Made by a program: the position numbers and the translations under genes
From: Suillus spraguei
Taxonomy: Eukaryota > Basidiomycota > Agaricomycetes > Boletales > Suillaceae
Direction: 5' to 3'
Assembly: GCA_016800925.1 (NCBI GenBank)
Contig: JABCPU010000304.1
Span: 17,411-81,410, forward strand
DNA: 64,000 nucleotides
Shown here: in pieces, positions 5,301 to 46,380 of the stretch
Numbering within the stretch: the first letter of the stretch is position 1
Layout: the number at the start of each line of letters is the position of its first letter
The notes under the pieces: generated by a model
Told to the model about the DNA's origin: nothing
Database searches by the model: none
What the model saw: only the letters and a program-made list of their open reading frames with translations

Positions 5301-7204
5301 GCGATACAGGGCATACGATCAAGGCCTTGCCGATTACTGGCCCAGCGCCAACGTAGGGATTCTGCTCTGTGGCCAGCTTGGAGATTGTAACACAGATATG
5401 AGACAGCAAACTTACTGAGAAGTGTCCACACAAGAGAAATTGTCTGTAAAACGTGTCACCGAGTGTGAACAATGTCGAATGAACGAACAGACCTGGAGGG
5501 TTTTCCCCAGACCCCTGGAACCTGAGCATCAACGTTTGCATGCAAACTGACAGACTGAACACTTACATCTCATCAGCGAGTATACACCCTTGACCCTCAT
5601 GTCTTCGCAAGCCCATGACACATTCATACATAAACTTGACGCCTGTAACATCTTGCGCTATCAAAGAAATGACATATCCAGATAGTATGAATACCTTCGA
5701 TCTGATGTGGACGAAGCTGTCTTGCAATGATGGGATCTAAGACGACCGCTACAGTGGGCAAGTTCCTGCAATGATATTTCAGGTTCGCTTCAATAGAAAC
5801 GCAACGACAATGCGTACTTCTTGTTGAACTTCGTAGCATGCTCTGGGGTTGTCGCTTTCATGACGATTGCTCCCTCTGCTTCGGGATCATGCCTGGCTGG
5901 CTTAATAACCTCGCCAACAAGGAGCTGAAGGAGCTTACAATGGCTCATTAGGCTTTTTAATTTGCTTCTGACCATAGAACGACGCGGGGGGCACGAACGC
6001 TTTTGAAGTACCTGGAGACGCAACTGTGATATCATTCTCTTTGCCAGGGAGAGTACTCTTCGCCTGAAGCAGAAACGAGGGCTTGTGTGGTGAAGATAAC
6101 ACTACCGGCGAATTTTCCTCCGGTTCAGGCAATATATCGTCCACTCCAGTGATGGAAGGCATTCGCGATGCTGGTACTTGTGAGTCCAACTCAATTTGTT
6201 TGCCACCGGCGCTGAAGCTGTATCCATTATGTAGAGGAAGTCCGTCCCATTCCTTACGGCCAAGTCTATAACGACCGTTCAGTGAGAGGCGGGCGATGAA
6301 GAAATCAAATCCTACTTACATTTTCCCCTTTTCTGATATCACAGTAAGCTTGTCACCGACATGGCTAACGAATGCATCACCATCCCAGGTCTTGTGCTTC
6401 TTGCTCTGCGGCTTCCGCCTACGAAAGTCAGCAGTCAGCACATATACAATATCAATATCCTCGCTCCTTGCTCACCAGTTAGCAGACCAGTAAGTGGCTG
6501 GCACATTTGCTTTCGAAGAGCCTGCGGAGGGAGGGTTCCGCGTGGACAGAAGATTGACAGGATGAAGATCAATAGCCCTTTTGTCTACGGCTTTCAATGG
6601 CGTCTTGTAAGGTACATTCATCTTCATCACCGGCAACGGAGCGACACGCAAAGAGGGTGTCACGGAGTTATTGCCAGTTATTTCAGACGATGGCATACTT
6701 CCCCGACCATAGCACTTTCCAGACATGTATTCTCCACGAGAAATCGGACGATCAATCCTGATCTCTCTCTCTCCAAATTTATACTCTCCATTCTCCTCAA
6801 CCTTGGGCGCATTTAAGGACCCAGCACTCATTCTGTTGGTGCGACAGCACAGATTAACCTTGATCCTCAGTTTTCTCGACCATAGAATAAAACGTACATC
6901 TTTCCTTCTAGGTCAAACATCGACCCTCTAATACCTGTAAGAACCAGGATGGCATCCCCGTCCCAGGTTTTGTGTTTCTTGTACTGGGGGTATCTCCTAG
7001 TACTTTGGAGTGAGTATAAAGGACTCAAGTTGGGACTCGCACGTACCACTGAATCATCCAGTACTCTTCTCCCCCATGATTACTGCTTGCACGACACGTT
7101 GAAGGACCTCCGAGTGCATTCTCAATCGCGACTTTCTTCCTGCTGGAAGTATCGAGTGGCAGCTTTCGTTTCTCGCCCGTCAGTGGTGACTGATACGCAG
7201 GCAT
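2334..7204 (-). CDS. RDH54: RDH54/TID1 (RAD54B-type) SNF2 DNA translocase, multi-exon
   Basis: Rad54-family Swi2/Snf2 ATPase of homologous recombination, a nuclear motor that remodels Rad51/Dmc1-DNA filaments. The start at 7202-7204 gives [16 protein letters not shown]. The N-terminal part contains [10 protein letters not shown] twice (near 7000-6950 and 6400-6370) and [20 protein letters not shown], the N-terminal block of Rdh54-like proteins. Helicase motifs follow: GCILADEM joined by a 29-nt microexon to GLGKTLQ (Walker A, near 5515), CDEG at an intron border (motif II, near 4845), [14 protein letters not shown] (motif III, near 4700), then [38 protein letters not shown] (motif V) and [14 protein letters not shown] (motif VI, near 3390-3330). 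The C-terminus ends [11 protein letters not shown] at 2334. I joined the exons by hand through about 15 GT-AG introns of 45-70 bp and found no frame disruption at the joints checked, unlike several neighbouring genes. RAD54 itself is less likely because of the N-terminal block and the TAESLALIN signature. Confidence 0.88.
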
Positions 7205-20604: not shown

Positions 20605-23572
20605 ATGTTTGAAGAGGTTGAGACGTATTCAACTCCACCAAGCTCACCAGCGGCAGAAGGACGAGCGGACGGTATGCCCACAGAAACGTGATTCAACCCT
20701 CGTTATCGAGAAAAAATAGTCGGCTATCGCTGTTATCGTCGTTGGCGTTGCATACGAATGTCGTATGGCATCATGATGTTTTAGCAGAGCTTTCAGGAGC
20801 AAAGGCTGTGGCACGACGGCTAAGTCCAGGTGATGATCTCACAACCCCAGTTCACCACGACTTCCTTGTGGCACCACCATCTATCGAATCACCCAGATCA
20901 GTTTCAAGCTCGAGCTTAAGCTCTAGTCCCAGTTCATCATTATCAATGCCCATGTCTGCAAAGTCACCTTGCTTCGTGCATTCACACCTAGATAAAGGAG
21001 CATCACTACAGGACTGGCTTGACGTCCATGCAAAGGATAACGAGGTACTCGGTGCAGACGTCGGAGTCGCCAAGGCTCTTAAGCAACATCATCGGCCTCG
21101 ACACCACGTTGAGTTGCCTTGCCCTGATGGAAGTAGCTATGCACTCTCAGAAGATGACGATAACGATACGTATGGCGGCAACCTGACGAAACAGCTGGCT
21201 GAGACAGCAGTCGGGGTTCGTGAAATGAGCAAGCAGCTCGGTGAGTGTTGTTCTTATTCTCATACCATCCATCCACTCAACAACCATGCACCTTCAGGAC
21301 GTGCTCGAATAAGATCTAATATCCAGAGCATCCTCATCGTAACCAAGGCCAGAGATAACCGCCTTATCAAACTGACACGTGAGCTTGCATTATATCTGAT
21401 GCTCAAACATGGTCAAGGGGGTCGAGGCCTTATTGTGTGAGTTTTGAACCTTGAATATCATTCAGGGTGTTTTATGAGGACTTCACCAGCTATGTGGACC
21501 ATCAACTGCGCAACTCGAGGAGGTTCGACGCTGAAGGCATACAGAGAGACCATCCAGAATTATTTGAGCCTCTCCCACGAAGACGGTCGTCTAGCAATTC
21601 TCTCTCTTCCTTATCATCATCATCCACTCATCAGGACGATCTCAACACGCACCAGGAAGGTCAGCTACGATACTGGACTAGTGATATGTGCCGCAATAGT
21701 CCACATCTCTTTGATTTTGTCATTACGGTAAGCGACCCAGCTCACACGTCTCTTTGAGTCAACTCACTTCGATGCTTAGCTTGGAGGAGATGGCACTGTT
21801 CTTTTCACGTCATGGCTCTTTCAACGAATTGTTCCTCCCGTCCTCCCTTTTGCCCTCGGCTCCCTCGGCTTTCTCACTAATTTCGACTTTGCCGATTATC
21901 AAGCGGTCGTAGACTCAGCCATCGACTCAGGTATTCGTGTCAACCTACGCATGCGATTCACTTGTACAGTCTACCGTGCTGTATTCGACAAGAAAAAGGG
22001 CCGCAAGGCCGTGAAAAAGGGTGAAACAGGTGAAATCATGATGAAGGACGTAAACAAAGGAGGATGGGAGGCACTCGAAGGAGGCTGGTCTGGTGGATTT
22101 ACCACCTCGGAGGGTGGTAAGTGTTCGAGGGACAAGGAAATCATGTGTTTCACAACAAGACCAGTTGAGACGTTTGAAGTTCTCAACGATCTTGTGGTGG
22201 ACCGGGGACCCAGTCCCTATGTCAGCTTGCTTGAATTATTTGGTGCGTTACCTCTTCCGATATTTGGGGTATATATGTTTATCATCATGAAGGCGACGAA
22301 CACCATATGACAACTGTGCAAGCCGATGGGCTTTGTGTAGCCACGCCCACCGGTTCCACTGCTTATTCAGTACGCTTCTCACCATCACTGGTTGGTCACC
22401 GATATTAACTCTTTTCTTGTGTAGTTATCTGCCGGAGGGTCCTTGGTTCACCCGGAGATACCTGCAATCCTCATCAGTCCTATTTGCCCTCATACGCTAT
22501 CCTTTCGTCCCATGCTCCTTCCCGACAGTATGGAGCTCCGTATCTGTGTCCCATATAATTCTCGTAGCACAGCTTGGGTGTCTTTCGACGGCCGAGGACG
22601 TGTGGAACTGCAACGTTCGTCATTATATGCCACTTTCATTCAGTCGCTTACTTTTCTAGCAGAGGGTGATCATATTAAAATAACTGCTTCCAAATACCCT
22701 TTCCCAACTGTTTGCGCGGATAAACAGTCGACTGACTGGTTCCATGCCATCTCACGAACTCTGAAATGGAATGAACGCGAGCGTCAAAAATCGTTTGTTG
22801 TAGTCGAAGAGGGCCCATCACGGAAATCCAGCACGGGTCAAACGAGAGGTCCTGAAAAAATCAAGCAAGATGTTATGCTCGATGAAACTTTGGAGGATGA
22901 AGAGGAGGATGAGACGACGTCTGACGAAGAAGATGATAAATTTGACATCAATGACTCCTCGCCCGAGGCTTCGGCTAGCGGACGTATTGGTACTCAAATT
23001 CCGAACCAACTAAATGCTAAAGATACTGCATTCGGTATCGCAAAAGCTTGCGAGGAAATGGGCTCTCAGATAGATGAAGATTTGCTCTCGACACCGGAGT
23101 TGGCTGCTCTTGCGCTTGGTCAAGGCCGTCGCCTCAAATTCTCTCGTTCGGCCAAATCACGTTCGCGTTCAAGATCGGGTTTGCGTTCTGGTGTTGATAC
23201 TCCAGGGCGGTTCGCTGGACCCACACATCGTCCTCCTCATATCAAACCCCACTACATTGATGATCAATTAAGGACGCCCTCTCCTGCACCTTCAAATTCT
23301 TCGGATGACTCATTGTCGAATATGGACGTTGCTCACGTGGTGCTCGGGATGATATACATTCTCGGGAGCAATATTCAAGTGCTCGTAGTCGCATTCCCAA
23401 AGACAGGGAATTTAACGATAATCTTCAAACTCCCACCATGGCAGACACACCCTCGGGTCGTAGAAATAATCACAGAGTGGATTCGATGGATTACGACCAA
23501 CATCATCCCCGCGCCTTTGCTGTCTGGGGCAATGACGAGTCCGATAGTAATGCAAGTGACAGCGATGCTTAA
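20605..23572 (+). CDS. NAD kinase (Utr1/Pos5-type ATP-NAD kinase)
   Basis: Phosphorylates NAD(H) to NADP(H). Core motifs are clear: FDFVIT spliced to LGGDGTVLFTSWLFQR (the GGDG catalytic loop), ALGSLGFLTNFDF, NLRMRFTCTVYR, ADGLCVATPTGSTAYSLSAG (conserved TPTGSTAYS) and a C-terminal TWVSFDGR-type WVSFDGRGRVEL. Introns occur at 21241-21297, about 21438-21466 (only about 29 nt, oddly short), about 21729-21780, about 22243-22292 and about 22369-22424. Two frame breaks are needed. ATG 20605 (MFEEVETYSTPPSSP) connects to the open frame from 20688 only if one base is restored near 20670. The natural C-terminus, SARSRIPKDREFNDN to NASDSDA with stop at 23570-23572, needs one more base near 23318. As printed, the long frame instead runs to 23651 with an unnatural tail. 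A Ser/Arg-rich segment (near 23140-23190) and an acidic segment (near 22885-22940) follow the kinase core, as in other fungal Utr1-like proteins with extended tails. Confidence 0.9.
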
Positions 23573-23852
23573 TCATTTGGAATATGATATGTTAGAACTT
23601 CCTCACCGTTCTTCTGCTGCCCTATTTCCTTCCTGTTCTTTTTTAAATTAATCACTTTACCATACCCAGACATCTTAAGTGCTTTGTGTTTGCTAGCATC
23701 ATTACTTGTACCATTATTTTTATGCGTGTGTTGTGGATTTTAGGGATTTCTGGTCACGTGGGATCTGCTTATGCACGCGACTCCTCTGCAGTGTCCAGCA
23801 AAAAGACCTCATTTCATCGAAAGTTGGTACCTGCAAACTGTAGTAGCTGCGC

Positions 23853-26885: not shown

Positions 26886-27653
26886 CTACGGTTGATTTTC
26901 GTCTCTAATATGCTGCGCCACCTGCCGAGCCACCTCCTTGGTCATTCCGCATCGTTTTGTGAGGATCCCAATGACATCTGTCTTTTTAGGACGTCCAACC
27001 ACAAATTCTACAAGCTTGGCAATGAACGAGCCAAGCCATCCTTGTCCACCGGTCCACCCTTCCATGGATGCATTGCAATGAGCCTCAACCACTCTACGGA
27101 GTATTCCACGCGACTCCTCGTACTTGTCTCTATGTCTCCCGTCGAGAAGATCTGCCGCAGTTATGCATGCGTGTCCCACAGACCTGATGTTATGCTTCTC
27201 CAAGTGGCCCACATTCCGCTCGTACCAGTCTTCCATCCTCGTCTCTCTTTCGAGGTTTGTGACGACTAGCGCGAGTGGGACTTTTTCCTCGCAAAGAAAT
27301 TCGAAGAACAACCTGTAGTTGCTCTGCATGGTTGCCGTGACTCTACCTCCGCGTATACAAAAGAGCAAGAGGTCGATACCTCCACGTTCTTTCAGAGTGT
27401 TGATGAGGCCATATGCGTTTGAAATTGCAGTGAGGTAGTCTCCAGTTTGTAGACGGGGCTCCTCGAGGCCGACCGTATCAAACACCTTATATCGAGTTCC
27501 AGTATCGAAGGTTATCAGGTACTCTGTCCAATGCAGAGTACAGCGGTGAGAGTCGGGCGATATGTGCGCAATCCTTTGGCCTGCCATCAGGTTAATGACA
27601 GAGCTTTTGCCCGCTCCTGTTTCCCCAAAGATGACGATGTTCCGACTCGGCAT
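26886..27653 (-). CDS. P-loop GTPase, 255 aa (AIG1/septin-like TRAFAC G domain), intronless
   Basis: A single uninterrupted frame. G1/Walker A is GETGAGKSSVINL close to the N-terminus (residue about 10). A switch I-type Thr lies in HRCTLHW, and G3 is VFDTVGLEEP (DxxG). The position of G4 reads LVVTNLE, so the canonical NKxD/TKxD is degenerate. The protein resembles the G-domain proteins that form lineage-specific families in mushroom genomes and is closest in layout to AIG1/IAN GTPases; the cellular role is unknown. The C-terminal region (WLGSFIAKLVEFVVGRPKK) is amphipathic and could contact membranes. A paralogue is transcribed divergently from 28289. The gene is intact. Confidence 0.75.
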   Translation of the reverse strand: MPSRNIVIFGETGAGKSSVINLMAGQRIAHISPDSHRCTLHWTEYLITFDTGTRYKVFDTVGLEEPRLQTGDYLTAISNAYGLINTLKERGGIDLLLFCIRGGRVTATMQSNYRLFFEFLCEEKVPLALVVTNLERETRMEDWYERNVGHLEKHNIRSVGHACITAADLLDGRHRDKYEESRGILRRVVEAHCNASMEGWTGGQGWLGSFIAKLVEFVVGRPKKTDVIGILTKRCGMTKEVARQVAQHIRDENQP

Positions 27654-35999: not shown

Positions 36000-36375
36000 A
36001 CGGGATGAGCAGCGGCTCTCTCAGGGGACCGTCCATGCACTGTCATGTGATACTCATATGATGTGTACCCTGCCCACCAGCGGCTCCGTGAGGGGACCGT
36101 ACATGTGGACAATCCATGCACTGTCATGTGACACACATATTATGTGTGCCGTGCTCACCAGCGGCTCCCTAAGGGGACCGCACATATGGACTATCATGTG
36201 ACACTCATATTATGTGTACCCTGCCCACCAGCGGCTCCGTGAGGGGACCGCACATGTGGACAATCCATGCACTGTCATGTGACACGCATATTATGTGTGC
36301 CGTGCTCACCAGCGGCTCCGTGAGGGGACTGCACATGTGGACCGTCCATGCACTGTCATGTGATACTCATATTAT
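36000..36375. repeat. Tandem repeat with alternating unit length (about 69 and 81 bp)
   Basis: CAGCGGCTC occurs at 36010, 36078, 36159, 36229 and 36309, so spacings alternate 68, 81, 70, 80. Two unit types alternate: one preceded by ACCCTGCCCAC and one by GCCGTGCTCAC. The real repeating unit is therefore a dimer of about 150 bp. Confidence 0.8.
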
Positions 36376-36569
36376 AAGGATTTCTGTAAATGGGTTAGGT
36401 ATAAAATGTGGTTTGGTTACCCCTAAGGCCCGTAAAAACAACTTCATATTCAAGTAGGTCATCAAAACCTTCATATATAATCTACCTTAAGCCCTACAAA
36501 ACAGTAATAAATAGTCTAAATACAATATTATAACCAACACATATAGAGCACTGAGCAACCAGAAAATAC

Positions 36570-36723
36570 TCATAGCATGAGTATATCAAGCCAAGTTAAT
36601 AAACCGACCATGTATTACAGAGTTTATTTATGTGAAGTATATACATGTATATACTTCATACATAAATAAAGTCTTTATTACTTGGTTGGTTTATTAACTT
36701 AGCTTGATATACTCATGCTATGA
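36570..36723. repeat. Long AT-rich palindrome, about 75-bp arms
   Basis: The left arm starts TCATAGCATGAGTATATCAA and the right arm ends with its exact reverse complement TTGATATACTCATGCTATGA. The arms meet at a central TATACATGTATA with a few mismatches inside. It lies about 190 bp upstream of the unknown long gene. Confidence 0.85.
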
Positions 36724-36828
36724 ATCAATATGTGGATATACGCCGCATATAAAACAGTAGTGAACGCGGTACACATTATGGTACGCCCATAATTATAATG
36801 TAGCAAGTATACTATATATAATTGTATG

Positions 36829-36884
36829 TATAACCCGCCCTCACAACGGTAGTGAGTGCGGCGATCTTGTTTCGTTGATACAAT
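36829..36884 (+). repeat. Left copy of the 55-bp direct repeat bracketing the unknown gene
   Basis: Begins TATAACCCGCCCTCACAACG, contains TGAGTGCGGC and ends GATACAAT. The same order of blocks recurs at 42291-42345 beyond the gene's 3' end. A related partial block (CAGTAGTGAACGCGG) lies at 36755-36769. Confidence 0.6.
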
Positions 36885-36914
36885 CATCATCATCAATCAC
36901 TATATACATTAACA

Positions 36915-39900
36915 ATGCCTCCCAAGGGTAGAAGATCTGGTGGAAAGAAGACTGGAACGTCAGCAGTGAGTCGAATTCTAAGGAAGATGAGAAGACATAC
37001 TGAAATGAAATGTTAAACACTTATCAGGTGGGATCGGTAGCCAACCTTCAATTGGATACAAGACCTGTGAGAGCAGAAGCACCTGAGAATGACTTGGGGA
37101 AAGAGACACAAAGATTGGATACCTTGGTTGCTAAATGTAAGGCTGGCATTGCATGGTTGAATATCTTGACGTTTGCCCACCGATTTAAATTCGGCATTTA
37201 CAACAATCGTCCTGAGAACGAAACAGAGACAAACAAATTCATATCAGTGTTCAAAACGAAAGGAATCGTGCCGATGAAAGACGTTACTGCGATCCCCATC
37301 ATCATCTCCAAGAAGCGCATCGGAAACTGCGATGCTCTTGTGAGCGACTTCTCGGATCCTGACGTAGTATATATCAAAACGTAGGTCTTCTTGCGATATA
37401 ATTAATTACTCTACAGGGATATAATGATGTCAATGATGACGATGCTGAAGAAGACCAAGACGAAGATGTCATTCGTCAGCTTATCAGCAAGAAGACTAAA
37501 GGGGGCGCCAAACCTAGCCAGCCCTTGACACCTTCTACAGAGGTCTTCAGCCCTTCGAAGGCCACAGGTTGTCAAGACAAGTGTGCTGACGATGACAATG
37601 AGCCACGAGATCAAACGACCCCGAAGGCTCAGATGTCTGCTCCAAAGCCTCGCCCCATTCCTCGCAAGAAACGTCAGGCATCTCCTGTTCGTGCTCCTGT
37701 AGAAGATGAAGCACATACATCACCTTCTACTTCAGAAGATACCGTAAATACACAATGTGAGTGTTAGAATATATTACTTGCTTACCAGACTCCCATCGTC
37801 TTCTGTGCATATATTCTGGCTAACCAACATTACTTCTCACAGATAATTCATCTGATGTGCTCAGCAATGATGGCAGGCAAGACAATGAAGCTCTTGTCGC
37901 CCTGGGTGTAATGGACGACACCACTCATGACACCGACATCATCCTTGGCGACGCTACTCTGCCAAACGCCTCTGATACAACGGTTGTATATGCGGACCCT
38001 AGCCTAGTTAGTGGTACGTGACTCACCAACCCTATCGACATACCAACTTGGTTCCTTCCAGAAGAGAACATGGCCGCTGATAAGACAGTTCTATTAGCGT
38101 CTCAGACGTCTTCCTTGTCCTGTAATCTCATTGCCATTCTTCTTGCTTATAGTCAATACTAACTATTGTTTCAATTACAGTACAGGACCATGATCTTTTG
38201 GGTACGATCCATAACTCATCCTCGGCACCCCCTACTGAAGATGATGATCGGCCAAAAGGTTGTGCTACGGATGATACCACTTGGTTCGAACAGGAGGATG
38301 TCGATGAACTGGCCACTTCTCAAAGCAGCCGTGCTGCTGATCCTGATGCTTCTGTTGAAGAACTTCTCGCCACTCCTGGACCCGAGTGTAAGACGCTTAT
38401 AGAACTGTTGTCAGCGCGTGCTAAACCTCTTTCTCCGTGTGTTTGCTTTTGACAGCCTCCAAACTTGTCCCCACTCAGCCTTTGACTCAGTTGGTAGAAG
38501 AGGTCTCGTCTGTTGTCCACCCTGGTGCGTTTAGTATCATGCTGTAATCTCTCATTGCCAAGTCCAAACCTAACCCTCTTAGCTACTGCTCCCGCTCCCG
38601 CTCCACCTGTCACTGGTTCCTCTACTACTAAACGTCCGAGGACCCACACAGGTACGTCCCCTTAGACTTCACTTCAGTGATATCAAATAACCAACCATCC
38701 TATCGCAGGTGCATCCTCTGGCTCTTCCACCTCTGGCCATGGCAAGAAATCACAGAAGAAGAAGCCTAGGATATGGCGTGCTGCCATTGACGCACAAGAC
38801 ACTGGTGCAGATGAGGTCATCATTATTCCTGGCATGTGATGGACTCATATTTGTCGTTCAATTTCGCATCCTTTGTGCTTCTTTAGAGTTTTGTTTCTGC
38901 CATTGCCTGTATCCTTTGTTTGTCGTCGTCTTAGTGTCGCTCATTCAATCTGCTTGTCTGCAATGCTCTGGCATATCAATGGATGTTGCTCCTACTCAGA
39001 AAATACATCTGAAATGCCGATTGGGCAAAGTGCCCTCTGACATTCTTACAAACAGTTCGTATTTGGCATAGTTCAGGTTTGCGTTCATAAGCACCCACTT
39101 TTGGTCATGCTAGTACGATCGCAGTTTGTCACCGCCGCAGGTCCATCAATGGATCGCACTCACACTTGCACTAGTTGCATTCTCTATTCTCTATTTCATT
39201 GCGGCTCAACTGCACCGTGTCGTCTATATTATTTTAGAGATCAAGTCAAGCTTATGTTGTCTTCAGAGTGCCCACCAGCGAACTCGTTAGCATTTGTAAA
39301 TGTCCGTTATGCGTGCAAGTTAAGCTTTAATTTCAGTCATTTTGCAGATGGCCCTACGTTACCGATGTGCTGCTAGTTGCCCTTTTGTGATTTGATATCC
39401 CCTTGGGATGAACCGAACTACTCAGTGGCATGTTCGCTTCTGATTTGCCTAGTGTCTCCAGCCTTTCTATGGACTAACCTCATTGAGTCTATTTTCCTTC
39501 CATAGGCCCTGAATGTGATAGCCTTACCATTCCAACAACTTCGCTTGCGCTGCCTTGCATTGTGCGTCAGGTTGCTATATGACTCTTTCGATCATTTCGG
39601 TTCGCTACCTTTTACCGGCCCTTTTGCATCCTAATGTGTGCAAGTCACGCCAGGCTGGAACATTGGTCGAGTCGACCTGATTGGGATGCAAAGGAGCCAT
39701 TAATCGCAGCCTCCTTGGATCTTCGCAGATGCTTTTACCATATTGCTCTTTCAGACTTCTGACCTCCCTCCTTTTACCAGCTATGTTACATTCCAATCAA
39801 GTCGACTCGACCGACGTTCCAGCCATAGCTGGCGTGACTTACACACATTAGGATGTAAAAGTGCCGCTAAAAGGCAGCGAGCTCAAATGTTTGAAAAAGT

Positions 39901-41870
39901 CCTTTCTCGACCTCAATTTGCAATCTGCCCTATGGCAATGCACCTGCTTCCAAACACAGCAGCCGCATCTCCCATGTATCTTGTAAGTTTTTTTTTCTCA
40001 CCTTTTCTGCATTTTTCATTTCTATCTCGCTTTCTTGACATTGCATTTGCACGGCCTCTTTTCGATTTCTAGCAGCAGGGTCTTCCTACCTTTGCTCCTT
40101 GTATCCGTACCACCACCACCATCAATAATCCGATCGCCATCAGCGCAGTCGACTGGCCCACTTTGGACAATCTCAATGTCCCAGCTATCGCTTCCAAAAG
40201 ATCCCAGGTGCTGACTTATGGCAACGATCATTTTGAGGCGAGGTCCTTTGCTCATTTCAGATGCTGAGGCCGGTGCTCACTTACTACTTGATTTTATTTT
40301 ATTTTAGGCATACAAAGCCAGCTTTCACATCGAACTGTCGGTCAACAAGCTCTCGCCCCACGTCTTTCTACAATATACGACGCAAGAACACCATTGCATT
40401 GTCATCGCTTTGGTGGCTTTGCAGTCCTACATGGCTGATGTGAAGACGTTGGTTGCTGCTGCAGTCAAGAAGGAATGCTCGAGCGAAGCTGAGGATATGG
40501 ACTCGAACGAACATAGTCCCACGAGAGACAAAGAGCGTCTCAAATCTTTGCAGAAATGGTTGGCTTCGGAATACCCTCTCGGCTACAAAGACCGATCGTA
40601 TGAATACTTACTGAGATGCATAGTCAGTGACCTGAACGATTTTTCGCAAGGTCTTCCCAATTCTTCCAAGGAGAAGTTGAGCATGCAAGAGTTTGCTGCA
40701 TGCATCTGCAAGATGACTTGTGTGGACTCTCCTTCGTCGGTCGCGGCCCCTCTCATCTTAACAGCGCCATCCACCGCCGTCTTGCGCATCGCTTATGCTC
40801 GGATGCTCAAATACGCTCCTCTAAACTCGCCTGCAGCAGCTGAGAAATTTATTCAGCAATGCTACATCATCGCTGCCAACCATCTCCAGATTCAGCATGT
40901 TCCATGGCATGCGCCTCATTCGGGAGGTAAAGGTCGTCCGTCGCGCAAGGCCATCCATAACTCATGGGTGAATCTCGGGAAGTCGTCGTTGGCCAATAAT
41001 GCGGGCGTCGGTCGAGCCAACCCTCAACCGGTGGACATGGCAGCAGAGGCAGCGAAGAAAGCAGATGCATCGGATGCTCGAGCGCCATGGGTGGTCGAGT
41101 CTATAACGCTTCAGTCTCTCCCTCACTTCTTTGGTCGGGACAGTCTTCCTGATGAATTCACATTGGAGAACATCGAATGCAAAATGGACGAGCTGTTGAC
41201 GAAGATATACAAATGGGTTTTCGCCAACTTCGACCGAGAAAAGCCGCTTCACAAGATAGCCTTGCTCGCAGGGATTTACTTCAGTCATGTGTTGCCGGAC
41301 ATGTTCTGGGATGTGAAAGACAAGCCTACGAAAGACAAGCTTCTAGGGGAATATGCGACCATGCATGCAGTGAGAGCACTTCCCTGGAAGGCCAACAAGG
41401 GCAGTCGCAAGGGAAGCACCTGGAGGGCGCAGTTCGTGGCTATGGTGCCAGCATACATCATCTCAGTGTATGAGCATGAGAGCCCTTTGCGAGAATACTT
41501 CAACAACTGGAGGGCATTCCCGACGCCGTGGAATGCAAAGAACAGCGCTAAAGGGATTGGATCGCTGAATTTGGTGAGGATGGGGCTGGCAAAGGCCCGC
41601 TGCAGTCAGATCTTCAAGGGCGGCGCCCCATTGTCTGATTGGGTGCTGCTCACCAATGAGGAGTTGGTGATGAAGCACAGTGAGCTCATGGGCCACCTCG
41701 AAGACCGGCAGTACGGACCTTTCAAGATCGCAGTTGCATTCTTCGGGCTTGATAAAGCAGTGGAAATAGGAGCGACGACCGGCACATACACCAACCATCC
41801 TGCAATGACATCCATCGCACAGAAGAAGCGCCAGCTCCCAAGGGCGAATCAGATTCAGAGGTTGAGATAA
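36915..41870 (+). CDS. Long multi-intron gene of unknown function inside the repeat island
   Basis: Not recognised. Exon 1 (36915-36965) starts MPPKGRRSGGKKTGTSA; exon 2 (37028-37380) gives VGSVANLQLDTRPVRAEAPE and AWLNILTFAHRFKFGIYNN. A series of short, mostly phase-1 exons follows at 37417-37756, 37843-38013, 38062-38121, 38181-38390 and on to about 38840. These are acidic, Ser/Thr/Pro-rich, with a basic KKSQKKKPR patch. Exons between 38.9 and 40.2 kb are uncertain, and a foldback sits there. From 40311 a clean 3' splice site opens the main block (AYKASFHIELSVNKLSPHVF), which runs uninterrupted to 41870. It includes LQKWLASEYPLGYKDRSYEY, FFGRDSLPDEFTLENIECKM and LLAGIYFSHVLPDMFWDVKD, with no membrane segment. 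Intron borders and codon use look like a live gene. One base seems missing at the exon 2 donor (near 37381). The N-terminal half looks disordered and regulatory, and the C-terminal 500 residues look globular. Confidence 0.6.
39608..39874. repeat. Foldback: about 80-bp inverted arms around about 100 bp
   Basis: The left arm (39608-39685) contains CATCCTAATGTGTGCAAGTC and GGTCGAGTCGAC. The right arm (39786-39874) contains the matching GTCGACTCGACC and GACTTACACACATTAGGATG. The arms differ by a few substitutions and a 6-nt gap. It falls in the poorly resolved middle of the unknown gene, either in an intron or as an insertion. Confidence 0.8.
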
Positions 41871-41912
41871 TAGAACATGCCCAGAACAAACGACACCGGC
41901 ATTAGAACTACC

Positions 41913-41947
41913 ATGACCGCGCTCACAACTGTTGTGAGCGCGGTTTA
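41913..41947. repeat. Palindrome just past the unknown gene's stop
   Basis: CCGCGCTCACAAC is followed by TG and then its near-exact complement TTGTGAGCGCGG. Single-arm versions of the same block (TGAGYGCGG) occur in the bracketing direct repeats, so the three sites look related. It lies 45 bp after the stop codon and could also act as a transcription-end hairpin. Confidence 0.65.
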
Positions 41948-42290
41948 GTATACACATGCACGTACATGAGGAGGCAACATATTTGTGAAGGGTATACGGT
42001 ACTTGAAACAGCATTTAATAACCATCCGTTGGCTATGTTGCATGGCTGCAGGTGTGACCGCATGTTCAGACTTATGCCTCCGATACAACGGTTGCGTGTG
42101 CGTCGTACACGTACATTTTGTTTGTTACAATGTAGGGCTGTTTGATTGTACAAACATACTATAAAAGGCGTGCCTTGCTGTCCGGCATCAATAATGTGTA
42201 CTGTGTTCTGACCGTCATGATGTGGGTGCTTGTCCAACTGTGCCATTATATGCTGATATGTGCACTAAATTTGTAGACTGATGCTGATGC

Positions 42291-42345
42291 TATAACCGCC
42301 CTCGCCACTGTTCTGAGCGCGGCCATAGCGGTGTAGCGATACAAT
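42291..42345 (+). repeat. Right copy of the 55-bp direct repeat bracketing the unknown gene
   Basis: Begins TATAACCGCCCTCGCCACTG, contains CTGAGCGCGGCCAT and ends GATACAAT. It matches 36829-36884 in block order and length with perhaps 65-75 percent identity by eye. Confidence 0.6.
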
Positions 42346-42659
42346 TATTGTATCGCTCGAGATGTCATGGTTGCTGCGCTGGCAGAACCAAATGAGTTCT
42401 ACAGGACAGGGTTGCTGGTCCGAGTTGTGACAGGCGGCATAATTTTGGTTGGTAAGTAGAAAGAATAATTGTTCATATTTGGTATTCACATTGTGACGGT
42501 CGAGAACGTTGTGACGGCACAGGTTTCTACAATGAGAAAGGGCTGGGTGATCGATGCGCCTGGCAGGGGTCATATCTGCATGGACACTGCGTACCTTGAA
42601 AGAAAAGAACAAACCTTTCTTACGAGGTACACACTGTCCATGCATACATGGGAAATTCA

Positions 42660-43400
42660 TACCGCTGCCACTATATACATAATGTTCTACATGCAGTTCC
42701 ACAGGCCATGTGTTGGTGTACGTAGAGAGAAAGGTTACTACTTACTTGCGCACCTGGGTGCAGATGGATGAAGAAAGGGAAATCCATCCTGCTGCGCCTA
42801 TGTATCATAAAGTTCATGTACCAAGTAGGGGTGCACCTGGTACATGAGACCGAGTGCATGCATATATGTCGATCCATGCCACCACCCCTATGTAAATAAT
42901 GCTCTATATACAATTCCACAGACCACGCGTCGGTGTACCTGGAAAGGAAGGATACTAGTTCCTCGCGAGGCTGGGCGTACCCAGTCCATGTGGATAGCCC
43001 AGTTCACAGCAAAGCTGCATCCCATCTCAAATATGATCATCAGATGTGATCTTCATATCTGATCTCCATGATATCCGGACATACTCCTGTCAAGTAGTTC
43101 CACACTTCCCTTCAGATCCACAGAGCTCCGCTCCTCCCCCACCAGAACTCCCCCTCAGATTTCATCCGAAATTTGGGGCTCATATTCAGGAAAGGGACAC
43201 AGTATATAAGCTGAGGCCAAGCCCTTCTGATGGACGTCCAGGATTGCCTGGCCGCACCAGCTTGAAGAAAGAGAAAGCCATGCCGCTGCGCCTATATAGA
43301 TAATGCTCTATATACAATTCCACAGGCCACGCATCGGTGTACCTGGAGAGGAATGATAGTAGTTCCTCGCGAGCCTGGGTGGACCCAGTCCATGTGGATA
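42660..43400. repeat. Three dispersed direct copies of a repeat about 100-120 bp long
   Basis: Copies begin near 42665, 42884 and 43278. Each carries TAATGCTCTATATACAATTC (or a close variant), then CCACAGGCCACGC-like sequence, TCGGTGTACCTGGA and a CTCGCGAGCCTGGG-like end. The last copy leads straight into the palindrome at 43377. No coding frame is conserved across them. Confidence 0.7.
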
Positions 43401-43544
43401 ACCCAGTACACCGCGAAAATGGATGTCCATACTGGGTATTAAAGATATTTTCTTTGTCAACTGAAGAAAATATTTGTAATACCCTGCAGTATGTGCATCC
43501 ATGTTCAAGGTGTACTGGGTTATCCACATGGACTGGGTCCACCC
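43377..43544. repeat. 168-bp inverted repeat with about 82-bp arms
   Basis: The left arm starts GGGTGGACCCAGTCCATGTG and the right arm ends CACATGGACTGGGTCCACCC. The pairing continues inward through ATAACCCAGTACACC and ATATTTTCTT with a few mismatches. Confidence 0.85.
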
Positions 43545-43574
43545 GAGAAAATATTGTCAATACCCAGTAGTATC

Positions 43575-43657
43575 ATTTTAGAGGGTTTTTGCAAGTGGGT
43601 TGGGTTTGGGTTCAGGTTGGGTTCTCATTTTTTGGCGTAGAGTTATATAGAGTCACT
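43575..43657 (+). repeat. Left 83-bp direct repeat flanking the 87-bp satellite
   Basis: Begins TTTTAGAGGGTTTTTGCAAG, runs through TTGGGTTTGGGTTCAGG and ends TATATAGAGTCACT. An essentially identical copy lies on the other side of the array at 44457-44539. Confidence 0.88.
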
Positions 43658-44456
43658 GTTGGTATAGAGCTATATCACCTCATATAGGACCATATATATA
43701 TGCGCTGCAGGCAAGAGATATATCATGGTACCAAATGGCACTGGACCTCGATGGGACTATGTGAGCCCATATAGGACCATATTTATATGCGCTGCAGGCA
43801 AGAGATATATCATGGTACCAAATGGCACTGGACCTCGATGGGACTATGTGAGCCCATATAGGACCATATATATATGCGCTGCAGGTAAGAGATATATCAT
43901 GGTACCAAATGGCACTGGACCTCGATGGGACTATGTGAGCCCATATAGGACCATATATATATGCGCTGCAGCTAAGAGATATATCAATGGTACCAAATAG
44001 ACCTCGACCTCGATGGGACTATGTGAGCCCATATAGGACCATATATATATGCGCTGCAGATAAAAGATATATCATGGTACCAAATAGACCTCGACCTCGA
44101 TGGGACTATGTGAGCCCATATAGGACCATATATATATGCGCTGCAGGTAAGGAATATATCATGGTACCAAATAGAACTCGACCTTGATGGGACTATGTGA
44201 GCCCATATAGGACCATATATATATGCGCTGCAGGTAAGAGATATATCATGGTACCAACTAGACCTCGACCTCGATGGGACTATGTGAGCCCATATAGGAC
44301 CATATATATATGCGCTGCAGCTAAGAGATATATCAATGGTACCAAATAGACCTCGACCTCGATGGGACTATGTGAGCCCATATAGGACCATATATATATG
44401 CGCTGCAGATAAAAGATATATCATGGTACCAAATAGACCTTGACCTCGATGGGACT
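43658..44456 (+). repeat. Tandem satellite, 87-bp unit, about nine copies
   Basis: The landmark GGACCATAT occurs at 43687, 43774, 43861, 43948, 44036, 44123, 44210, 44297 and 44385, so the period is 87 with two 88-bp steps. Units are nearly identical. The unit is divisible by three, so frames at 43725-44000 and 43987-44187 stay open and repeat a 29-residue peptide (VPNGTGPRWDYVSPYRTI...). That openness is a by-product of the period and is broken at each 88-bp unit. I do not call it a gene. Confidence 0.9.
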
Positions 44457-44539
44457 ATTTTAGAGGGTTTTTGCAAGTGGGTTGGGTTTGGGTTCAGGTT
44501 GGGTTCTCATTTTTTGGCGTAGAGTTATATAGAGTCACT
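44457..44539 (+). repeat. Right 83-bp direct repeat flanking the 87-bp satellite
   Basis: Same sequence as 43575-43657, starting in the truncated last satellite unit (GGGACTATTTTAGAGGG) and ending TATATAGAGTCACT. Confidence 0.88.
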
Positions 44540-44679
44540 AATTATCTTAACGGGGCTGTCTAGGGTAGCCAGGACGATGCAACCACGACGCAACTCGGCG
44601 TAACTTCCAAATCGAGACGACCATCTGATGCAACCTGCAGTCGAAATAGCCGGGCGCCCGCCTATTCTCATGGATTCTG

Positions 44680-44885
44680 GCGCAACAGCGACGCAACCTG
44701 GCGCAACTTGGTGCAACAGCGATGCAACTTGGTGCAACCTGGTGTAACAGTGACGCAACCTGGCGCAACTTGGCGCAACCTGGTGTAACTCGGTGCAACA
44801 GTGACGCAACCTGGCGTAACTTGGTGCAACTTGGTGCAACCTGGTGTAACTTGGTGCAACAGCGATGCAACCTGGTGCTACCTGA
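44680..44885. repeat. Short-period minisatellite of GCAAC-type units
   Basis: Degenerate units close to GCAACCTGGT and GCAACTTGGC repeat with a period near 10-11 bp. Mixed variants (GTGTAAC, GCGCAAC, GATGCAAC) show old divergence. Open frames on the minus strand here (Val-Ala-Pro and Leu-Arg rich) are by-products. Confidence 0.8.
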
Positions 44886-46380
44886 AGTTGAAATAGCCAG
44901 GGGCCTGGCTATTCAGCGAGTTTTTTCATGACTGCCAGTTCTTATGGATGGTAGGTGGAACTGCAATGCACCACCTTGAAAAAAATAGGCGGGCGCCCGC
45001 CTATTCAGCCACTTTTCCATGGATGCTAGTGTAACTCGGTGCAACTGCAATGCACCATCTAATGCTACCTGCAGTTGAAATAGCCGGGCGCCCGCCTATT
45101 CAGCCAGATACAATACGATACCACAGCAAGTCAAGCGACACGACAGCGATAAATCAAGCAATGCGATAGCAAAAATCATGCAACACGAACCCAAGTCCAA
45201 ACGAGGTCTTCGCCTCAGATAAAGCCACACGATAGCAACAAATAGCCAAAATCAAGCCAAGTCCCAACCCACGCCACAGCAAAAAATAGCAAAAATCATG
45301 CAAAATCAAGCCAAGTCCGAATGAGGTTTTCGCCTAAACCCACGCCTCACATCAAGCAAAGTCAAGCCCAGTCCTGACGAGGTTTTTGCCTAAAGCAACG
45401 CCTCAGATCAAGCAAATTCCGAACGAGGTTTTCGCCTCAGCCTAAATCGAGTCCGCCAGAAACCAGCATATCTAATGCACCAGCGCATCCGATGCAACCA
45501 GTACATCCGATGCAACCAGTATATTCGATGCAACCTCCAGAGAGACGACCGCAGCAATAAAACAAGCGGGCGCCAGCCTATTTCTCTAGCAGCAATAACG
45601 ACAGCGAGACGATCCAGGAGACGACCGCAGCAACAAAACGAAGTCATATAAAAATGAAATTTCATCATATTCGGAATAGACAGACGCCCGCTTATTTAGA
45701 AATGAAAACGATGGCAGAAGCATCACCATAGCATAAGACGCCACAGTTAGAACCAGGGTTCGGGCAGTTAGAGCTAGGCTTCGGGCAGTTAGAGCTAGGC
45801 TTCGGTGTCTCGTCAGTTAGCCTGGTTCGGCTGAAAACGTATTGTCTCGGTGTCTCGGTTCTCGGTACCATGATGCCACGATAGTCAAGACAACGATACG
45901 ATACCACAGCAAGACGAGCCATACGACAGCAATAAATCAAGCAACCTAATAGCAAAAATCACGCAAAATGAACTCGAGTCCGAACGAGGTTTTCGCCTAA
46001 AGCCACGCCCGAGATCAAGCAAAAATCAAGCCAAGTCTGAAAGAGGTTTTCGCTCAAAGCTACCCCTAAGTTTCTAAGGCAGGGAGTACACCCCGTCCTA
46101 GGGATGCGCGCCTGCCAAATTCATGGCGCACTGCGCGCAGAAGGTGCGCGCCAGCCAGAGGTAAAGTTTCTAAGCCAGGGAGTTCACCCCATCCTCAGTG
46201 CGCGCGGCGCGCAGAGGGTGCGCGCCAGCCAAGCAAAGTCAAGCCCAGTCCTGACGAGTTTTTCGCCAAAGCTACGCTTCACATCAGACAAAAATCAAGC
46301 AAAGTCAAGCCCAGTCCTGACGGTTATGAGACCCCCTAGGATCCACCTAGGATCCATTTTTTTCTATTCTTCTCTTTCAT
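44886..46380. repeat. Complex dispersed repeats; no gene
   Basis: Several short motifs recur: GGGCGCCCGCCTATTC (near 44655, 44995, 45090), GAGGTTTTCGCCT and variants (near 45212, 45322, 45372, 45425, 45985, 46041), a roughly 90-bp direct repeat at about 45115-45205 and 45896-45990, and two copies of an AAGTTTCTAAG to GTGCGCGCCAGCC block (about 46069-46155 and 46164-46232). No coding capacity is supported. Confidence 0.7.

What the first reader, a model, noticed from the sequence alone, without database searches (positions are those of the whole stretch)
36570..42345. Unknown multi-intron gene bracketed by direct repeats and palindromes: candidate undescribed mobile or selfish module
A roughly 5-kb gene with many short phase-1 exons, no recognised domain and a 500-residue intact C-terminal block lies inside otherwise non-coding satellite DNA. 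A 55-bp direct repeat ending GATACAAT flanks it (36829-36884 and 42291-42345). A related palindrome (CCGCGCTCACAAC...) sits 45 bp after the stop, and a 154-bp palindrome sits upstream. A live-looking gene in such surroundings, with repeat brackets, is what a cargo-carrying or self-propagating element would look like.
Basis: partly seen in the sequence, partly recalled or inferred. Interest (0 to 1): 0.8.

Follow-up and report, generated by a model that had tools for sequence, protein, structure and literature searches.

The report
Mushroom transposon with ParB-like gene
The odd gene is the shrunken remains of a multi-copy jumping DNA element of Suillus mushrooms whose longer copies encode a protein predicted to be shaped like ParB, the bacterial DNA-partitioning clamp, together with a second protein of unknown function.

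Summary
The gene is real, and it is not a single-copy host gene. The window is Suillus spraguei contig C486, and the feature is a decayed copy of a dispersed element. Seven insertions with distinct left flanks share one precise left end (TATAAGG or TATATAGG, always after AT). Two insertions have an uninterrupted counterpart of their target elsewhere, and one interrupts gene 2 of a relative.

Longer copies carry two genes. Gene 1 (about 1,100 aa) has a predicted N-terminal ParB/sulfiredoxin fold with a GQHR motif. Gene 2 (about 1,340 aa, DUF8190-type) has no recognised fold. The window copy lost 2.5 kb of gene 1, including GQHR, and 3 kb of gene 2. A second insertion (C158) has the same gene-1 deletion, suggesting movement in trans.

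They are two of a set of 27-bp palindromic sites spread through the element: candidate binding sites for gene 1. The right end was not found, the strand-transfer enzyme is unidentified, no fully intact gene 2 of this family was seen in this genome, and ParB kinship rests on a predicted structure and a motif, not on sequence scores. My searches of the paper library found no description.

The parts
36371..36372 (+). AT of the target site, immediately left of the element
   Evidence: All 7 distinct insertions have AT immediately before TATAAGG or TATATAGG. The uninterrupted counterparts on C489 (...GAGCAT|GATACC) and C503 (...GGATATT|CCTTAG) contain it.
36373..43576 (+). Mobile element, internally deleted copy. 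Left end precise; the right limit is the last base shared with C1093/C606 before the next repeat, not a proven terminus
36570..36723 (.). 154-bp inverted repeat in the leader; in C1093, C723, C485 and C550 it is duplicated
   Evidence: 64-nt arms, 91%
36915..38839 (+). Gene 1 remnant: ATG context MPPKGRRSGGKK..., N-terminal piece, then the tail ending VIIIPGM; the central ~2.5 kb (GQHR motif and helical region) is missing
37369..37370 (.). Deletion junction 1 (about 2.5 kb lost relative to C1093, C723, C485, C550); same junction in the C158 copy
38935..38946 (.). Short deletion junction (about 220 bp absent relative to longer copies)
39569..39913 (.). Inverted repeat between the genes (85-nt arms 81% plus 39-nt arms 87%)
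39887..41870 (+). Gene 2 remnant (annotated BDR07DRAFT_1542915, P0001): C-terminal half of a DUF8190-type protein, frameshifted near its end
40073..40074 (.). Deletion junction 2 (about 3 kb lost: N-terminal ~600 aa of gene 2), AGCA shared at both break points
36743..36769 (+). 27-bp palindromic site, 7 mismatches to the 41917 copy, upstream of gene 1
36835..36861 (+).
38393..38419 (+). 27-bp palindromic site, 8 mismatches, apparently just inside a gene-1 intron (follows GTAAG)
41917..41943 (+). 27-bp palindromic site, perfect palindrome, after the gene-2 stop
42296..42322 (+).
43577..44459 (+). Different dispersed element carrying the 87-bp array. Its left end (TTTAGAGGGTTTTTGCAAGTGGGTTGGG) resembles this element's left end and also follows AT

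Best explanation
The feature is an internally deleted, non-autonomous copy of a Suillus mobile DNA element. Shown: copies share one left terminus inserted after AT; longer copies elsewhere in the genome carry gene 1 (predicted ParB/sulfiredoxin fold; open along residues 22-911 in C550) and gene 2 (DUF8190-type; nearly complete in C1093 but frameshifted near its end); 27-bp palindromic sites are scattered, mainly in non-coding parts; two insertions at different places share one deletion junction. Inferred mechanism: the gene-1 protein binds the palindromes as an NTP-dependent, ParB-like DNA-bridging clamp and assembles the element, gene 2 performs or recruits the cutting and joining at AT, and proteins from complete copies move deleted copies such as this one in trans, like Ac on Ds. 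The order of these steps and the enzyme are not shown.
Confidence: 0.55

Rival explanations
1. Rolling-circle (Helitron-like) element or passenger: replication starts at the fixed left end, stops at variable right points and inserts at AT, with the Rep-helicase supplied by another element; genes 1 and 2 are accessory.
For: AT at 7 of 7 left junctions; one fixed end with variable 3' divergence points; no terminal inverted repeat found.
Against: No Rep or Pif1 helicase domain in the gene-1 and gene-2 proteins scanned. The left end begins TATAAGG, not the canonical TC (recalled). A 3' CTRR end was not looked for.
Confidence: 0.15
2. Left portion of a giant cargo element organised like a Starship: genes 1 and 2 at the left end, then variable cargo including satellites and other repeats, with the right end tens of kilobases away.
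For: Left end always precise while sequence behind the genes differs among copies. The right half of the target was not found on C158 (42.7 kb to the contig end) or on C606 (56.7 kb).
Against: No orphan right half of the C503 repeat next to element sequence was found (23 matches; 21 are on contigs, at adjoining positions, that gave left-half matches; of the other two, C769 has the left half and C1013 is a weak relative whose 201 bp read show no element). No tyrosine-recombinase captain was recognised. Some 3' differences may be assembly errors or later deletions.
Confidence: 0.2
3. Copies spread by segmental duplication or gene conversion in satellite-rich regions, not by transposition; genes 1 and 2 are a fast-evolving host gene pair.
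For: Several copies sit in small, satellite-rich contigs; C1190, C1168, C1016 and C695 share a flank.
Against: The left junction is base-precise in seven different flanks, two with uninterrupted counterparts and one within gene-2 coding sequence.
Confidence: 0.08
4. Single-copy conserved host gene with chance repeats nearby.
For: The annotated protein P0001 exists as a predicted gene.
Against: Three full-length matches of the block (the window, C1093 and its near-identical C606) and other contigs with parts of the element in the same genome; deletions and a frameshift in the window copy.
Confidence: 0.02

Closest known systems
ParB-CTPase fold proteins (ParB, Noc, KorB, PadC; SspE by recall; sulfiredoxin in eukaryotes)
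   Same: Predicted N-terminal fold of the gene-1 family and a GxHR motif placed between a strand and a helix; palindromic DNA sites nearby, as parS is for ParB (recalled).
   Different: No sequence-level match; a long helical insertion between the motif helix and the next strand; a ~900-residue C-terminal part without match; nuclear, intron-bearing gene on a fungal repeat; no ParA seen. A 2025 survey of the fold names sulfiredoxin as the commonest eukaryotic form; the words fungi, fungal and transpos occur 0 times in its main text (PMC12704722, passages read).
KDZ (Kyakuja, Dileera, Zisupton) and Plavaka DNA transposons of basidiomycetes
   Same: Basidiomycete DNA elements that can carry extra genes; two Kyakuja families are reported to lack terminal inverted repeats (PMC12730594, passages).
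   Different: Those encode named transposases and make target duplications of 2-8 bp (passages); here no known transposase was recognised, the left end differs and any duplication is unknown.
Starships
   Same: Fixed left end with conserved genes next to it and variable sequence behind (possible).
   Different: Starships are reported from Pezizomycotina and classified by a tyrosine recombinase (PMC12289983, PMC12134995; abstracts in listing); no such gene is recognised here and the right end is unknown.
Helitrons
   Same: AT target, no terminal inverted repeat found, one-sided variability (features of Helitrons recalled).
   Different: No Rep-helicase recognised in gene 1 or gene 2; different left terminus.

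Membership tests
ParB/sulfiredoxin fold superfamily | Predicted three-dimensional fold of the N-terminal domain | tested here: met
ParB/sulfiredoxin fold superfamily | Nucleotide-binding GxxR motif after a strand | tested here: met
   G147-Q148-H149-R150 invariant in the 17 aligned gene-1 proteins (a second, extra N-terminal copy in P0023 reads GQHQ); strand 142-144, helix from 148. Deleted in the window copy. That the motif binds nucleotide is recalled.
ParB/sulfiredoxin fold superfamily | Detectable sequence profile match (Pfam/NCBIfam) | tested here: not met
   No ParB family hit.
ParB/sulfiredoxin fold superfamily | NTP binding and loading at a palindromic site | not testable with these tools
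   The 27-bp palindromes are candidate sites only.
ParABS partition system | ParA-type ATPase partner | tested here: inconclusive
   None recognised in the gene-1 and gene-2 relatives scanned; sequence beyond the two genes was not annotated.
Cut-and-paste transposons with terminal inverted repeats | Terminal inverted repeats | tested here: inconclusive
   No inverted copy of the 24-base left end with up to 6 mismatches in the window and tiles held, and the 7 genome matches are all left ends. The right end is unknown, so absence is not proven.
Cut-and-paste transposons (KDZ, Plavaka, hAT, etc.) | DDE transposase | tested here: inconclusive
   No Pfam match to one in the proteins of either gene family that were scanned; gene-2 fold unresolved.
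Helitron | Rep-helicase protein | tested here: inconclusive
   No such domain in the gene-1 and gene-2 proteins scanned; sequence to the right of gene 2 in the long copies was not scanned.
Helitron | Insertion at AT | tested here: met
   7 of 7 left junctions follow AT; AT present in both uninterrupted targets. Right side unseen.
Starship | Tyrosine-recombinase captain (DUF3435) | tested here: inconclusive
   No match in Pfam scans of gene-1 and gene-2 proteins; other sequence of the element not scanned; that the captain is DUF3435 is recalled.

The most novel reading that the evidence does not exclude
A new class of eukaryotic mobile element whose machinery is built on a captured ParB-type, NTP-dependent DNA clamp. 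The clamp loads on a set of dispersed, parS-like palindromes inside the element and cooperates with a new recombinase (DUF8190) that inserts at AT and can act one-sidedly, joining a fixed left end and replacing the right flank. Deleted copies that keep ends and palindromes move in trans.
Probability: 0.25. Interest if true: 0.9.

Novelty: new variant of a known kind. Interest (0 to 1): 0.62.

Why it matters
In eukaryotes the ParB fold is known mainly from sulfiredoxin (PMC12704722, passages). A nuclear mobile element carrying a ParB-fold gene with its own set of palindromic sites would be a ready test of whether a bacterial-type partition clamp can serve transposition or maintenance of a selfish element in a fungus. 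It also gives a left end and a copy list to a repeat family whose genes are found in many Suillus genomes and are annotated there only as hypothetical or DUF8190 proteins.

Tried and rejected
Single-copy host gene: rejected. The 55-bp brackets as element ends: rejected; the left one lies about 460 bp inside the left end and the right one about 1.2 kb before the right limit. Terminal inverted repeats: none found. Insertion, rather than deletion, as the cause of the extra 2.5 and 3 kb in other copies: rejected, because those stretches encode conserved gene-1 and gene-2 residues, and junction 2 shows a short shared AGCA. Telomere repeats as a clue to chromosome ends: TTAGGG x4 gave 0 matches, its reversed control 2; uninformative. 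Viral or prokaryotic relatives of gene 1: 71 and 43 pattern matches, none confirmed at E 1e-3; plasmids none at E 10. Gene-2 fold: poor model; the PDB second look and the viral library gave no convincing match. ParB was not in the 50 rows shown by Foldseek. Searching for the right junction through the right half of the C503 repeat: nothing. A genome-wide count of the 27-bp motif and of gene-1/gene-2 family members did not complete because the server was busy. A right end for the 87-bp element was sought in L064-L066 without success. One search printed nothing because of a fault in my script; one search replaced it.

Full report
WHAT THE WINDOW IS. The window is contig C486:17411-81410 of an unnamed 86.2-Mb genome. 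Its annotated protein BDR07DRAFT_1542915, on a contig of the same length (81410), is labelled Suillus spraguei, an ectomycorrhizal basidiomycete (lifestyle recalled).

THE OBSERVATION. The 520-residue open block (40308-41870), the palindromes and the repeats are there, with no Pfam hit. But the '55-bp brackets' share only a 27-31-bp palindromic motif and GATACAAT, and they lie inside the element.

MULTI-COPY ELEMENT. A search of the own genome with 36370-42500 hit ten other contigs at 95-100%, and further contigs at lower identity. Left ends agree to the base: AT|TATAAGGATTTCTGTAAATGGGTTAGG (one subgroup TATATAGG), with different sequence to the left. C1093 and C606 match over 19.8 kb including flanks (99.2%) and count as one locus; C1190, C1168, C1016 and C695 share one flank and count as one. 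That leaves seven distinct insertions including the window. AT precedes the element in 7 of 7. Uninterrupted counterparts of the target exist for C158 (C489, 96.5% over 1.5 kb, GAGCAT|GATACC; three more relatives at 83-85%) and for C1093 (C503, GACGGATATT|CCTTAG). In C723 the insertion interrupts gene 2 of a relative at about residue 117 of P0037. C723, C550, C485 and C606 are 99.5-99.9% identical to C1093 inside, so movement was recent; the longer aligned segments of the window copy are 95.5-97% like C1093, its leader 99-100%.

THE RIGHT SIDE IS UNSOLVED. Window and C1093 agree up to ...AGTAGTATCAT (43576). There the window continues with another dispersed element, the 87-bp-array element, which also follows AT and whose left end resembles this one. 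Other copies depart from C1093 at different points: C550 at C1093-equivalent 7999, C158 at 6936, C695 at 5576. The right half of the C158 target occurs at 4 places, none on C158. The right half of the C503 repeat occurs at 23 places (up to 3 mismatches), none on C606 or C1093. So the element may insert one-sidedly, may be much longer than seen, or the regions may be rearranged or misassembled. I cannot tell which.

TWO GENES. Longer copies carry 2.5 kb, about 220 bp and 3 kb that the window copy lacks. Gene 1: 17 proteins including the query P0018, all Suillus; the complete-looking ones are about 1,070-1,250 aa, and P0023 (1,400 aa) has a doubled N-terminus. In C550 the exons align to P0036 from residue 22 to 911 with stops only in inserts that look like introns; C1093 shows frame breaks in gene 1. 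Gene 2: 35 proteins and 20 (each from a capped candidate list); those with species names are all Suillus except P0070, Leucogyrophana mollusca. Several carry the label PF26608.1 and some the name DUF8190; that these are the same is inferred from the shared rows, and the local Pfam scan did not reproduce the label. My exon model from C1093 agrees with the annotated P0064, from a contig of C606's length, along most of its length; they differ by one residue at one junction and around one exon. C1093's gene 2 is frameshifted near its end, C485's is interrupted by the 87-bp element, C723 runs off its contig, so no fully intact gene 2 of this family was seen here, although full-length relatives such as P0049 (1,323 aa) are annotated in S. 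spraguei. Gene 1 and gene 2 are linked in other species: predicted proteins that run from one into the other (P0033, P0018) and hits on contigs of equal length in S. occidentalis and S. clintonianus (same contig inferred from length, adjacency not shown).

PALINDROMIC SITES. The perfect palindrome at 41917 is one of a set. At up to 8 of 27 mismatches the window has 5, all in the element; Markov controls give a mean of 0.04 per 64 kb, maximum 1 in 100. The consensus was taken from the element itself, so this shows repetition, not function. C1093 has 11 sites at up to 10 mismatches: tile 1874, 1957, 2176, 2268, 3273, 5289, 6145, 6569, 9546, 13325 and 13704 (8 of them at up to 8). One further site in the element (12761, 11 mismatches) and one in the flanks (18998, 9) are at noise level. 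Two strong ones, 3273 and 5289 (3274 and 5301 in C550), fall in inserts of the gene-1 alignment read as introns; others lie upstream of gene 1 and after gene 2. The weak one at 6145 and its window counterpart 37969 lie in an apparent exon.

NON-AUTONOMOUS MOVEMENT. The window and C158 share the same gene-1 deletion junction (GACGTAGTA|TATATC; one substitution next to it in C158), at different insertion sites, 97.7-98.2% identical around it. The simplest reading is that a deleted copy moved, so functions were supplied in trans (inference). The gene-2 block shows dN 0.025 and dS 0.055 between window and C1093 (29 and 18 differences), consistent with some constraint followed by decay.

HOW IT LIKELY WORKS. 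Gene 1 as a clamp on the palindromes, gene 2 as the joining enzyme or its recruiter, insertion at AT. The first two are inference; AT on the left side is shown. Rivals are a Helitron-like mechanism and a giant cargo element; the hallmark protein of neither was recognised in genes 1 and 2.

LITERATURE. DUF8190: 0 papers. ParB with basidiomycete and transposon: 5 papers, listing only, none apt by title and start of abstract. ParB-like, fungal transposons, KDZ: 2 papers, of which PMC12730594 was read in passages. Sulfiredoxin/ParB search: 103 papers, 12 listed; PMC12704722 read in passages, which name sulfiredoxin as the commonest eukaryotic form; the words fungi, fungal and transpos occur 0 times. 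Suillus with giant transposon or genome-expansion terms: listings only. Suillus spraguei with transposable elements: 0. Starship-like terms with Basidiomycota: 1 paper, listing only. Novelty is therefore within this library; Repbase was not available.

Noticed in passing
window 43577-44459 (and C1214, C1256, C1101, C616, C435, C847, C485): A second dispersed element with an 87-bp array. Its left end TTTAGAGGGTTTTTGCAAGTGGGTTGGG resembles the left end studied here and also inserts after AT, once inside the C485 copy of this element; in several contigs the arrays stand in both orientations.
   Followed up: partly
window 39007-39356: The stretch between gene 1 and gene 2 matches 16 other contigs at 74-80%: perhaps a shared regulatory or terminal module of related families.
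   Followed up: no
window 42335-42357: A second perfect palindrome type, AGCGATACAATTATTGTATCGCT, next to a 27-bp site; GATACAAT also follows the 36835 site.
   Followed up: no
window 44645-45100: Four similar palindromes of the type AATAGCCGGGCGCCCGCCTATT in the satellite right of the element.
   Followed up: no
window 22443-23651 and 26886-27653 (-): Host-type coding sequence: NAD-kinase C-terminal domain and an MMR_HSR1-type GTPase, so the window is not all satellite.
   Followed up: no
C1093:20747-22247 and C503:299669-301168: High-copy repeat (40 places scored, 93-100%) that is the target of the C1093/C606 insertion.
   Followed up: partly
P0031 (S. ampliporus): A predicted protein in which a gene-2-like N-terminus precedes gene 1, suggesting tandem copies or a different gene order in some families.
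   Followed up: no
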